64,000 bases of DNA from Solirubrobacteraceae bacterium (lineage in GTDB: Bacteria; Actinomycetota; Thermoleophilia; Solirubrobacterales; Solirubrobacteraceae), in NCBI GenBank assembly GCA_025934395.1, contig JAICYC010000004.1:1-64000 (forward strand). Direction: 5' to 3'. Of the stretch, positions 9,762 to 14,782 are shown piece by piece. Below the pieces are notes generated by a model. The model saw only the letters and a list, made by a program, of their open reading frames with translations. It made no database searches and was not told the origin of the DNA. Positions within the stretch are counted from its first letter, which is position 1. Each line of letters starts with the position of its first letter. The position numbers and the translations under genes are program-made.

Positions 9762-10127
9762 ATGCGACTGTTCGCACTGCGGGGCGCGGTCAGCGTCGAG
9801 GAGAACGACGCCCCGCAAATCCTCGAGGCCACCGCCACCTTGATGCGGGAGATCATGGAGCGCAACGCGCTCTCGCCGGAGGACGTGGTGTCCTGCATCT
9901 TCACCGCCACCGACGACCTCAACGCGGAGTTCCCCGCCGTCGCGGCGCGCGAACTCGGCTTCGGCGCGGTGCCGCTGCTGTGCGCGCGCGAGCTGCCCGT
10001 CCCCGGCTCGATGCACGGGGTGATCCGCGTGCTGATCCACTATCACGGCGCCGAGCACCACTCCCCGACCCACGTGTACCTCGGCCGCGCGACCGCGCTG
10101 CGTGCCGACCTCAACGCCGCGCAGTAG
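9762..10127 (+). CDS. aroH: Chorismate mutase, AroH type
   Basis: Monofunctional chorismate mutase of the trimeric AroH class, converting chorismate to prephenate, the first committed step to Phe and Tyr. The 121-residue product matches the class length and shows LRGAVSVEENDAPQILEAT at the N terminus (active-site Arg), VVSCIFTATDDLNAEFPAVAAR and the ARELPVPGSM strand. It is distinct from the helical AroQ class. It heads the aromatic block with a hisC-type aminotransferase, DAHP synthases, tyrA and aroA downstream. Confidence 0.95.
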   Translation: MRLFALRGAVSVEENDAPQILEATATLMREIMERNALSPEDVVSCIFTATDDLNAEFPAVAARELGFGAVPLLCARELPVPGSMHGVIRVLIHYHGAEHHSPTHVYLGRATALRADLNAAQ

Positions 10128-11230: not shown

Positions 11231-11251
11231 GCGGCGCGGCCGTCACAGCCC

Positions 11252-11280
11252 TTTACCGCGGCGGCGCCGTCTGCTACAAA
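11252..11280 (+). promoter_or_regulatory. Candidate promoter of the aromatic attenuator operon
   Basis: TTTACC (11252-11257) and TACAAA (11275-11280) are separated by 17 bp, each matching four of six sigma-70-type consensus bases. Transcription would start near 11286-11288, very close to the leader-peptide GGAG and ATG. Unlike the single-hexamer promoters elsewhere in the window, this one has a plausible -35 element. Confidence 0.4.
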
Positions 11281-11294
11281 CATCCGGAGCGACC

Positions 11295-11375
11295 ATGAGT
11301 CGACCGGCAGCCAGAATCGAGCAGCACCTCGCGCCAGTCACCTGGTCGTATCGCTACGCCTGGCGATTTAGCTAG
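11295..11375 (+). CDS. Aromatic leader peptide (attenuator of the DAHP synthase operon)
   Basis: A 26-codon ORF too short for the track. It starts with ATG 5 nt after a GGAG Shine-Dalgarno and ends TAG. Its last twelve residues are VTWSYRYAWRFS: two Trp, two Tyr and one Phe, the three end products of the pathway encoded downstream. Its codons (AGT, CGA, GCA, AGA, TAT, TTT) are unlike the GC-ending codons of real proteins nearby, as is usual for peptides made only to sense ribosome stalling. It lies in the 313-bp gap between the aminotransferase and the first DAHP synthase, the largest gene-free gap in the window. Hairpins that could compete with one another begin inside its aromatic codons. 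Function is inferred; the ORF, codons and pairings are seen directly. Confidence 0.8.
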   Translation: MSRPAARIEQHLAPVTWSYRYAWRFS

Positions 11376-11417
11376 GCGCTCCGGTCTGCGCCCGGCGTGA
11401 GCGGGCGCTCGCAGACC
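11357..11417 (+). promoter_or_regulatory. Transcription attenuator with mutually exclusive hairpins
   Basis: Four segments can be read. Segment 1 CGCCT (11357-11361, inside the Tyr-Ala-Trp codons) pairs with segment 2 AGGCG (11374-11378, at the leader stop codon). Segment 2, as GGCGC (11375-11379), can instead pair with segment 3 GCGCC (11388-11392). Segment 3, as GGTCTGCGCCCG (from 11383), pairs with segment 4 ending in AGACC (11417) in a 12-bp stem with a 4-nt bulge. A ribosome stalled on aromatic codons would mask segment 1 and favour 2:3; a ribosome reaching the stop would mask segment 2 and allow 3:4. No U-tract follows, so termination could be U-less, Rho-assisted or replaced by another mechanism. 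A further small hairpin (GGTCC/GGACC, 11424-11443) follows. The rest of the gap to 11543 shows only the AAAGGA Shine-Dalgarno of the next gene. Confidence 0.7.
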
Positions 11418-11543
11418 GCACCGGGTCCATGCCGCATCGGACCAAGCGCCACCCGAACGGGCGCATCGCGCCTCCTCACGGCCCACCGCGCGGGGGCACA
11501 GCACCGCAACACCACGCCGAGGCGTCAGTGAAAGGATGAGTCG

Positions 11544-12585
11544 ATGATGATCGTGATGAGAGAGACCGCGACCGAGGAGGAGGTGGACGCGGTCATCGCC
11601 AAGATCGAGCGAGCGGGCGCGCGCGCCCACCGCATCAAAGGCGCGCGCCTGAACGTGATCGGGGCGATCGGGGACGTCGAGCAGGACGTCAGCGTGGAAA
11701 GCCTCGGGCTCGAGGGCCAGCCGGGGGTCGACCGCGTGATGCCGATCCTCAAGCCCTACAAGCTCGCCTCCTCGGAGATGACACACGGGCATCCGACGGT
11801 GCTCGAGATCGGCGGACGCAAGGTCGGCGGCGAGAGCTTCGCGCTGATCGCGGGGCCGTGCACCGTGGAGTCGCGCGGCCAGACGCTCGACACCGCGCGC
11901 GCGGTCAAGGAGGCGGGCGCGGCTCTGTTCCGGGGCGGCGCGTACAAGCCGCGCACCTCGCCGTACGCGTTCCAGGGCCTGGGTCGCGACGGCCTGCGGC
12001 TGCTGGCCGAGGCCAAGGCAGAGACCGGCATGCCGATCGTCACCGAGCTGATGGACATGCGTGACATCGACGCTGTGCTCGAGGTGGCCGACGTCGTCCA
12101 GATCGGCGCGCGCAACATGCAGAACTACCCGCTGCTGGCGGAGATCGGGCGCTGCGGCATCCCGGCGCTGCTGAAGCGCGGCCTGTCCTCGACGCTCGAC
12201 GAGCTGCTGATGGCGGCGGAGTACATCCTGAAGGAGGGCAACCCCAACGTGATGCTGTGCGAGCGCGGGATCCGCACGTTCGAGACCGCGTACCGCTTCA
12301 CGCTCGACCTGATGGCGGTCCCGGTGCTCAAGGAGCTCAGCCACCTGCCCGTGATCGTCGACCCCAGCCACGCCGCCGGGCGCCGCGACCTCGTGGGCCC
12401 GCTGTCGCTCGCCGCCGCGGCGGTCGGAGCGGACGGGATCATCGTGGAGGTCCACCCCAACCCCGAGGAGGCCGTCTGCGATGGGCCCCAGGCACTGCGC
12501 GCGGGGGAGTTCGCGGCGTTCTCGGCGGCGGTCGAGCAGGCGGCTGCGCTCGCGGGGAAGGCGCTCAGCGGAAGGGAGCCGGCGC

Positions 12586-12593
<8 letters not shown>
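11544..12593 (+). CDS. aroF: 3-deoxy-7-phosphoheptulonate synthase, type I-beta with N-terminal regulatory domain
   Basis: First enzyme of the shikimate pathway: condenses phosphoenolpyruvate and erythrose 4-phosphate to DAHP. The 349-residue protein has an N-terminal ferredoxin-like/ACT-type domain (about residues 1-70), typical of allosterically inhibited I-beta enzymes, then the (beta/alpha)8 barrel with [41 protein letters not shown] and the metal-site regions [10 protein letters not shown] and [12 protein letters not shown] 11544 follows AAAGGA by 7 nt. It is the first gene behind the attenuator and overlaps the second DAHP synthase by 8 nt. Confidence 0.95.
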
Positions 12594-13677
<1,084 letters not shown>

Positions 13678-13696: not shown

Positions 13697-14782
13697 ATGC
13701 GGATAGCGGTCGTGGGGGTCGGGCTGATCGGCGGCTCGATCGGCCTCGCTGCGCGCGCGCGGACGGACGCTCGCGTGTGCGGCTACGACCCGGACCCCGG
13801 GGTGCGCGAGCGCGCGCTCGCGCTGGGCGCGATCGACGCGGCGGCCGAGGACGTGGCCGGCGCCGTGGCGGACGCTGAGGTGGCGTTCGTCGCAGCGCCC
13901 GTCGGCGCGCTGCCCGAGATGGTCGCTCTCGCGCTCGCCGCCGCGCCCGCCGACTGCGTGGTCAGCGACGTCGGCTCCACCAAGCGCGTGGTCGCCGATG
14001 CGTGCACGGACGAGCGCTTCGTCGGCGGACACCCGCTCGCGGGCCTGGAGACGGCGGGGGTCGAGCACGCCCGCGCCGACCTGTTCGACGGCGCCACCTG
14101 GTATCTCACCCCGGCGGAGGGCCGCACCGCGGGCGTGCTCTACGAGCGGCTCCACCGGCTGCTCGGCGCGCTCGGCGCCCGCCCGACCGCGATCGACCCG
14201 GAGGCCCACGACCGGGTGATGGCGTGCGTCTCGCACCTGCCCCACGTGCTCGCGAACGTGCTCGCGGCCCAGGCCACCGGCGTGCTCGGCGGACAGGACG
14301 GCGGCGAGAGCGCCGTGCAGCTGCCCGCCGTCGGGCCGAGCTTTCGCGACGCCACCCGGGTCGCGGGTGCCAACAGCGCGATCTGGACCGACATCTACCG
14401 CGCGAACGCCGGCGCGCTCCTCGACGCGATCGGCGAGCTCGATGCGCGGCTCGCACAGGTGCGCACGTGGCTCACCGACGATGACGGCGATGCGCTCACC
14501 GCGTGGAACGACGCGGCGCGGGCAGACCGCGACGCGCTGCTCGGGCAGGGCGCCACCGGCGGCACCCTCCGCGAGCTGCGCGCGTCGGTGCCCAACCGCC
14601 CGGGCGTCGTGGCCGACATCGCGCTCGCCCTCGGCCGCGCGGGTGTGAACATCGACGACATGGCGCTCGCTCCGTCCCGCGACAACCGGCAGGGAGTGGT
14701 GTCCCTGTGGGTCGGCGCCGACCAGGCCGAGCGCGCACGCGAGCTGATCGCCGAGCTGGGCTTTCCCGTGGTGGCGGCGTGA
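13697..14782 (+). CDS. tyrA: Prephenate dehydrogenase with ACT domain
   Basis: NAD(P)-dependent enzyme converting prephenate to 4-hydroxyphenylpyruvate for tyrosine. The 361-residue protein opens with the Rossmann motif VVGVGLIGGSIGLAAR, has GGHPLAGLETAGVEHA and HDRVMACVSHLPHVLAN in the catalytic part, and ends with an ACT domain (about residues 290-361, beginning LRELRASVPNRPGVVADIA), a common site of tyrosine feedback. It lies 19 nt after the second DAHP synthase and overlaps aroA by 4 nt (GTGA), so it belongs to the attenuated operon. Confidence 0.95.
   Translation: MRIAVVGVGLIGGSIGLAARARTDARVCGYDPDPGVRERALALGAIDAAAEDVAGAVADAEVAFVAAPVGALPEMVALALAAAPADCVVSDVGSTKRVVADACTDERFVGGHPLAGLETAGVEHARADLFDGATWYLTPAEGRTAGVLYERLHRLLGALGARPTAIDPEAHDRVMACVSHLPHVLANVLAAQATGVLGGQDGGESAVQLPAVGPSFRDATRVAGANSAIWTDIYRANAGALLDAIGELDARLAQVRTWLTDDDGDALTAWNDAARADRDALLGQGATGGTLRELRASVPNRPGVVADIALALGRAGVNIDDMALAPSRDNRQGVVSLWVGADQAERARELIAELGFPVVAA

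What the first reader, a model, noticed from the sequence alone, without database searches (positions are those of the whole stretch)
11252..11543. Aromatic leader-peptide attenuator controlling the DAHP synthase operon
Seen: a 26-codon ORF with its own Shine-Dalgarno ends in VTWSYRYAWRFS, five aromatic residues covering Trp, Tyr and Phe. Its aromatic codons overlap segment 1 of a set of mutually exclusive pairings (11357-11361:11374-11378; 11375-11379:11388-11392; 11383-11394 with 11401-11417), and the leader stop codon lies at segment 2. This is the textbook geometry of trp-type attenuation, but with mixed aromatic codons and placed before aroF-aroG-tyrA-aroA. Known: Phe- and Trp-leader attenuators usually contain runs of one amino acid. 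Inferred: the operon senses general aromatic tRNA charging. The last hairpin has no U-tract, so the terminator may be of an unconventional kind.
Basis: partly seen in the sequence, partly recalled or inferred. Interest (0 to 1): 0.85.

Follow-up and report, generated by a model that had tools for sequence, protein, structure and literature searches.

The report
Aromatic leader-peptide switch before DAHP synthase
Soil actinobacteria of the order Solirubrobacterales carry, just before the first gene of aromatic amino-acid synthesis, a tiny translated ORF packed with Tyr, Trp and Phe codons and butted against a conserved RNA hairpin, most likely a switch that senses whether the cell is short of aromatic amino acids.

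Summary
The 26-codon ORF (11295-11375, ...VTWSYRYAWRFS*) belongs to a leader found in at least 181 of 232 Solirubrobacterales genomes, between hisC and a DAHP synthase gene (aroF-type or aroG-type) wherever the context could be read. Aromatic codons are strongly concentrated in the correct frame just before the stop (up to 58% of leaders per codon position, against 2-5% background; Tyr in 120 of 123). The end, CGA-UUU-NNN-UAG, is nearly invariant at the nucleotide level, and a covarying helix (P1, in the window 11375-11380 with 11445-11450) starts on the last base of the stop codon. Two of its three stems are not conserved across the order. There is no U-tract, no evolved Shine-Dalgarno sequestration and no Rfam match. 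Best reading: a ribosome-position-gated attenuator of DAHP synthase that senses Tyr/Trp/Phe charging, with an output that is not a canonical intrinsic terminator (Rho-dependent termination is the likeliest guess). That it is a translated aromatic regulatory leader is well supported (about 0.9); the output mechanism is inference. It is a new variant of a known kind, restricted in these searches to one order.

The parts
11252..11280 (+). Putative leader promoter: TTTACC (11252-11257), 17-nt spacer, extended -10 TGCTACAAA (11272-11280)
   Evidence: TGNTA[CT]AA[ACT] lies upstream of the leader in 61 of 118 homologues against 0.2 expected from shuffles
11286..11289 (+). Shine-Dalgarno GGAG of the leader ORF
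   Evidence: sequence
11295..11375 (+). Leader ORF, 26 codons plus UAG: MSRPAARIEQHLAPVTWSYRYAWRFS*
   Evidence: homologues; in-frame aromatic enrichment and no in-frame stop in the 20 codons before the W codon
11343..11369 (+). Aromatic sensing codons: Trp 11343, Tyr(UAU) 11349, Tyr(UAC) 11355, Trp 11361, Phe(UUU) 11367
11364..11369 (+). Near-invariant hexamer CGAUUU (Arg-Phe codons that are rare in these genomes)
   Evidence: Kept in nearly all divergent copies found by the covariance model; CGA is 3.9% of Arg and UUU 5.0% of Phe codons in neighbouring genes
11375..11380 (+). P1 helix, 5' strand (GGCGCU), starts on the last base of the UAG stop
   Evidence: covariation
11445..11450 (+). P1 helix, 3' strand (AGCGCC)
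   Evidence: MFE fold of 11374-11452
11382..11418 (+).
   Evidence: covariation in the genus alignment A3
11424..11443 (+). P3 arm (11424-11428:11439-11443)
11357..11378 (+).
11530..11536 (+). Shine-Dalgarno GAAAGGA of aroF; no evidence that the leader sequesters it
11544..12593 (+). aroF-type DAHP synthase (regulated gene)
   Evidence: Pfam PF00793 and PF18152; NCBIfam TIGR01361
12481..13677 (+). aroG-type DAHP synthase ORF (profile match begins at about residue 50; the true start is probably downstream of the aroF stop), followed by tyrA and aroA
   Evidence: TIGR00034; tyrA 13697-14782, aroA ending 16074

Best explanation
A ribosome-mediated, cis-acting attenuator of the DAHP synthase operon. 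Transcription starts just before the leader ORF (inferred). A ribosome translates the leader. If charged tRNA for Tyr, Trp or Phe is short, it stalls in the aromatic cluster, its front edge stays short of nt 11375, and the P1-closed junction (P1 with P2 and P3) folds ahead of it. If charged tRNAs are plentiful, the ribosome runs on to the UAG. There its footprint (about 12 nt beyond the A-site start, established knowledge) covers essentially the whole 5' strand of P1 and keeps the junction from folding while the C-rich RNA beyond is being made. I take the folded state as the ON state (the analogue of the trp antiterminator) and the unfolded state as OFF, with premature transcription termination that does not use a U-tract, most likely by Rho. 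Shown here: the leader, its aromatic coding, the near-invariant CGAUUU-NNN-UAG, the P1 helix and its fixed position, the gene context, and the absence of a U-tract. Inferred: the stalling, which state is ON, and Rho.
For: Order-wide conservation at DAHP synthase: 161 of 232 genomes exact plus 20 divergent copies by covariance model at E<=0.01; 126 distinct loci upstream of aroF-type (85) or aroG-type (39) genes, 2 with no DAHP synthase seen because the stretch held ends. Aromatic codons at positions -1 to -8 before the W codon are 37, 54, 58, 33, 20, 29, 21 and 14% in frame, against about 5% in CDS, 0-5% further upstream and mostly 0-5% in the other frames; no in-frame stop in 20 codons. UAU is 50% of leader Tyr codons against 11% in CDS. 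P1: 95.5% of cells paired against 34-48% for slid versions, covariation 0.277 against 0.176 +/- 0.013, 0 of 500 shuffles; new A-U pairs at position 4 in a divergent genus. Genus three-way junction: 95.5% paired, covariation 0.163 against 0.111, 0 of 500. The position of P1 relative to CGAUUU and the stop is constant. No U-tract. Rho is encoded in the genome.
Against: No terminator, antiterminator partner or Shine-Dalgarno sequestration was found, so the output is unproven: the P1 3' strand has no more pairing downstream than with shuffled sequence. The leader does not compete with P1 more than swapped leaders do. The invariance of CGAUUU at synonymous positions is not explained by tRNA sensing alone. 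Four divergent copies lack the UAG at P1 and read 4-9 codons further, into P1. No transcript data exist here.
Confidence: 0.55

Rival explanations
1. Classical trp-type transcription attenuation, with leader codons, a 1:2 stem, an antiterminator and an intrinsic terminator hairpin.
For: Leader with control codons at the right place; in the window's genus stem 11357-11361:11374-11378 pairs fully in 16 of 20 sequences and competes with P1.
Against: No U-tract after the conserved stem (at most 3 T in any 8-nt window near it in 117 of 122); the 1:2 and second stems are not conserved across the order; no conserved downstream partner for the P1 3' strand.
Confidence: 0.13
2. Translational attenuation: ribosome stalling on the leader changes access to the aroF or aroG Shine-Dalgarno sequence, as proposed for the actinobacterial leuA LEU element and ileS T-boxes.
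For: Precedent in Actinobacteria (PMC1262725); in a few species the P1 loop carries CCUUUC complementary to the SD (for example L085, L119, L207; inspection).
Against: Across 107 leaders, constrained folds gave SD accessibility 0.495 (stalled) against 0.447 (ribosome at stop), indistinguishable from shuffled spacers (0.500 against 0.450).
Confidence: 0.13
3. Nascent-peptide arrest: WRFx at the UAG stalls the ribosome in response to free aromatic amino acid, as Trp does with TnaC.
For: Conserved C-terminal RF with a stop that directly abuts the structure.
Against: The residue before the stop varies (S, T, I, L, R, M, V), the W is replaced by R, S, P, Y or L in divergent copies, and four copies lack this stop; conservation is stronger at the nucleotide level than at the peptide level.
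Confidence: 0.07
4. CGAUUU next to the P1 stem is mainly a recognition or cleavage site (RNA-binding protein or RNase E-like) and the leader's translation only controls access to it.
For: Nucleotide-level invariance of CGAUUU with fixed spacing to P1, kept even where the stop codon is lost.
Against: Does not explain the in-frame aromatic clustering; no such factor is known for it.
Confidence: 0.07

Closest known systems
aroR leader of Corynebacterium glutamicum aroF (Neshat et al. 2014, as reviewed in PMC11802643; leader detected in PMC4046766)
   Same: Aromatic leader peptide in front of a DAHP synthase gene in an actinobacterium; read-through reported to rise under Phe limitation.
   Different: AroR carries Phe-Tyr-Phe. 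Here Tyr dominates together with Trp and Phe, and the near-invariant CGAUUU-NNN-UAG and the stop-abutting P1 junction occur only in Solirubrobacterales in these searches. aroR was not fetched or aligned here.
uORFC-13-1 motif upstream of aroF in Acholeplasma (PMC8632094)
   Same: uORF with Phe codon(s) upstream of aroF, predicted attenuation.
   Different: Next to an apparent intrinsic terminator, Phe only, different phylum; no terminator here.
E. coli trpL/pheL-type ribosome-mediated attenuators
   Same: Short leader ORF with control codons near the stop, and RNA structure whose folding depends on ribosome position.
   Different: No U-tract terminator, mixed aromatic codons, and no conserved 3:4 partner found.
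Actinobacterial LEU element and cys leader peptides (PMC1262725)
   Same: Leader peptides in Actinobacteria without an obvious terminator; Rho suggested for cys.
   Different: Different amino acids and structure; that paper reported no conserved RNA structures upstream of Phe or Tyr operons in the Actinobacteria it examined.

Membership tests
Ribosome-mediated amino-acid leader-peptide attenuator (broad class) | Short translated ORF enriched in codons for the pathway's product | tested here: met
   in-frame aromatic enrichment, frame controls, no in-frame stops; translation itself not measured
Ribosome-mediated amino-acid leader-peptide attenuator (broad class) | Located directly upstream of the cognate biosynthetic genes | tested here: met
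   DAHP synthase directly downstream in 124 of 126 accepted loci, the other two cut short
Ribosome-mediated amino-acid leader-peptide attenuator (broad class) | Conserved RNA structure overlapping the end of the leader | tested here: met
   P1 starts at the stop codon, covariation
Ribosome-mediated amino-acid leader-peptide attenuator (broad class) | Expression responds to charging of the cognate tRNAs | not testable with these tools
   needs reporters or term-seq
trp-type attenuator with intrinsic terminator | Terminator hairpin followed by a U-tract | tested here: not met
trp-type attenuator with intrinsic terminator | Mutually exclusive antiterminator and terminator pairings, conserved | tested here: not met
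Shine-Dalgarno-sequestering translational attenuator | SD access depends on leader structure more than chance | tested here: not met
   equal to shuffled control
TnaC-type arrest peptide | Conserved residues at the peptidyl end and stop codon | tested here: not met
   last residue variable, stop lost in four copies
Any Rfam family | Covariance-model match above gathering score | tested here: not met
C. glutamicum aroR leader | Sequence or structure homology to aroR | not tested
   aroR was not fetched; model R1 found nothing outside the order in a sample of 247 genomes of the phylum

The most novel reading that the evidence does not exclude
The CGAUUU-NNN-UAG element with the stop-abutting P1 junction is a distinct class of regulatory RNA in which the ribosome itself, positioned by any of the three aromatic tRNAs and by two near-invariant rare codons, gates a structure that controls Rho access, merging a trpL-type input with a tna-type output.
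Probability: 0.25. Interest if true: 0.75.

Novelty: new variant of a known kind. Interest (0 to 1): 0.52.

Why it matters
It would show that an order of poorly studied soil actinobacteria controls entry into the shikimate pathway with one leader that reads all three end products, where most known aromatic leaders read one or two. It has a sharply defined RNA signature, present in culturable strains (Solirubrobacter soli, S. taibaiensis, Conexibacter arvalis), so the question of how actinobacterial leader peptides without terminators work, left open in 2005 for cys and leuA, becomes directly testable.

Tried and rejected
Rfam scan: nothing. Intrinsic terminator: no U-tract. SD sequestration by constrained folding of 107 leaders: equal to shuffled control. 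Pairing of the P1 3' strand with a downstream region 4: equal to control. Leader region competing with P1: not above swapped leaders. Complement of CGAUUU in the loop or spacer: 6-mers not enriched. A genus-level pseudoknot between the P2 loop CGUGAG and a downstream CUCACG: suggestive by eye, not significant in a duplex test. Frameshift idea: the +1 frame is open for a median of 38 codons, not remarkable for this GC content (inference). Pairing of leader codons ACGCCUGG with the CCAGGCGU box before the SD: looked striking in some species but did not covary (inspection). Occurrence outside the order: phylum pattern hits have no aromatic-rich leader of this kind; the model found only two marginal class-level hits at E 0.005-0.008 and none in the phylum sample; the two marginal regions held no DAHP synthase match and no aromatic-rich ORF.

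Full report
What is there. The hisC-aroF gap of the window (11231-11543) contains a promoter-like TTTACC-N17-TACAAA (11252-11280), a Shine-Dalgarno GGAG (11286-11289), and a 26-codon ORF, ATG 11295 to TAG 11375, MSRPAARIEQHLAPVTWSYRYAWRFS. The genes around it are a monofunctional chorismate mutase (9762-10127), hisC, an aroF-type DAHP synthase, an aroG-type DAHP synthase, tyrA, aroA and cmk.

Is it more than chance? A DNA search of 61 genomes recovered the gap in most. All 28 loci that held the leader share TGGCGATTTNNNTAGGCG. Across the order the exact pattern occurs in 161 of 232 genomes, once each in the table, with no hits of the reversed control. A scan of named genomes identifies the order as Solirubrobacterales (Solirubrobacter, Conexibacter, Thermoleophilaceae and many MAGs). 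In 126 distinct loci the motif has a DAHP synthase gene downstream, aroF-type in 85 and aroG-type in 39, and in two the stretch held ends too early to see one; hisC lies upstream wherever enough sequence is held in nearly all. About 16 pattern hits elsewhere have no such context and are the expected chance hits. A covariance model (R1) added 20 diverged copies at E<=0.01 among the order's non-matching genomes. In a class-wide sample it found nothing convincing outside the order, and nothing in a phylum sample. Family f4, a reduced genome of g14 (G036) and one same-genus genome (G007) keep hisC-aroF without the leader.

Is it translated? Aromatic codons at positions -1 to -8 before the W codon occur in 37, 54, 58, 33, 20, 29, 21 and 14% of 123 leaders. 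Beyond position -10 the figure is 0-5%. In the other two frames it is mostly 0-5% (highest single position 17%). No in-frame stop occurs in 20 codons, while the other frames have many. In the eight codons before the W codon, Tyr is present in 120 of 123 leaders, Trp in 47 and Phe in 58. UAU makes up half of the Tyr codons, against 11% in neighbouring genes. The exact order of residues is not conserved (for example FYSYWRFI, YAYAYAYAWRFR, WSFYARYYAWRFS); the aromatic content is. That is what a charging sensor would show.

The nucleotide signature. CGA-UUU is kept in nearly every copy, including divergent ones in which the following-named Trp codon has become CGG, UCG, CCG, UAU, CUG or UUG. In CDS, CGA is 3.9% of Arg and UUU 5.0% of Phe codons. 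In the eight codons upstream CGA is never used (0 of 116 Arg codons), so this is not simply a preference for rare codons. The exact-pattern copies have it by construction of the pattern; the copies found by the covariance model are the less biased test. Four copies lost the UAG at this place and read 4-9 codons further, into the helix. This argues against arrest at the stop codon and for a function of the RNA sequence itself. What that function is remains open.

The conserved structure. A helix P1 of about 10 bp begins exactly on the third base of the stop codon: GGCG(CU|UC)CGGC... with ...GCCG(AG|GA)CGCC. In 34 diverse sequences 95.5% of cells are paired (34-48% when slid), with 28 double-sided changes and a covariation score of 0.277 against 0.176 +/- 0.013 in shuffles, 0 of 500. 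These 34 were chosen among those with a good helix, which favours the percentage paired. RNAalifold finds the helix unaided. An independent null on all loci (best helix in shuffled downstream sequence) reaches the same score in 1.9% against 63% observed. In the window P1 is 11375-11380 with 11445-11450 and closes a three-way junction with P2 and P3, supported by covariation in the genus. The inner sequences are not conserved across the order, which argues against a ligand pocket (inference).

How it may work. With about 12 nt of mRNA ahead of the A-site start covered by the ribosome (established knowledge), a ribosome decoding the aromatic cluster up to the W codon leaves P1 free. One at the UAG covers essentially the whole 5' strand of P1. 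Starvation therefore lets P1 fold and plenty prevents it while the downstream RNA is being made. Since a biosynthetic operon should be on in starvation, P1 is most simply the ON state. The OFF output is the weak point. There is no U-tract, no excess of SD sequestration and no conserved downstream partner. The RNA is C-rich (loop 40% C, 32% G), and the genome encodes Rho, so Rho-dependent termination is the likeliest output, but this is inference. A second -10-like element (TANNNT, 64 of 110 leaders against 19 expected) 30-40 nt before the gene may give leader-independent transcription in many species; it is degenerate in the window.

Relation to known systems. The class (ribosome-mediated leader-peptide attenuation) is known, and an aromatic leader before aroF is known from C. 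glutamicum (aroR, Phe-Tyr-Phe; PMC4046766, PMC11802643) and predicted in Acholeplasma (PMC8632094). The 2005 survey of Actinobacteria reported no conserved RNA structures before Phe or Tyr operons, and left terminator-less leaders (cys, leuA) unexplained (PMC1262725). The present element differs in sensing a mixed, Tyr-dominated set, in its near-invariant CGAUUU-NNN-UAG, in the stop-abutting P1 junction, and in having no identifiable terminator. I file it as a new variant of a known kind. I did not fetch aroR, so homology to it is untested. No paper found by the searches describes this element, but the library lacks most subscription papers.

Noticed in passing
L267, L268, L269 (family f4), hisC-aroF gap: This family lacks the leader but has a conserved perfect inverted repeat CACCAAAG...CTTTGGTG in the same gap, possibly a different regulatory element for the same operon.
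   Followed up: partly
30-40 nt upstream of aroF or aroG in many homologues (e.g. L194, L156, L002): A conserved TANNNT element followed by (T)CCAGGC, 64 of 110 against 19 expected, looks like a second promoter between the attenuator and the gene; it is degenerate in the window (CAACAC).
   Followed up: partly
window 11544-13677 and homologues: The same leader precedes either an aroF-type or an aroG-type DAHP synthase in different genomes, while the window has both in tandem; the regulator stayed while the enzyme type changed.
   Followed up: partly
window 11397-11401 and about 11473-11481 (genus g1): The P2 loop GUGAG is nearly invariant in the genus and complementary to a conserved downstream CUCAC; a possible pseudoknot, not significant in a duplex test.
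   Followed up: partly
L094 (CAJCHW010000211.1), same locus as L022: The record is titled 'Chlamydiae bacterium' but the locus is clearly from the window's Solirubrobacterales genus; a mislabelled or contaminated assembly.
   Followed up: no
leader codons -1 to -8 of all homologues: Arg codon CGU is strongly enriched in the leaders (37 of 116 against about 6% in CDS), as is UAU; U-ending wobble codons seem favoured in the sensing region.
   Followed up: no
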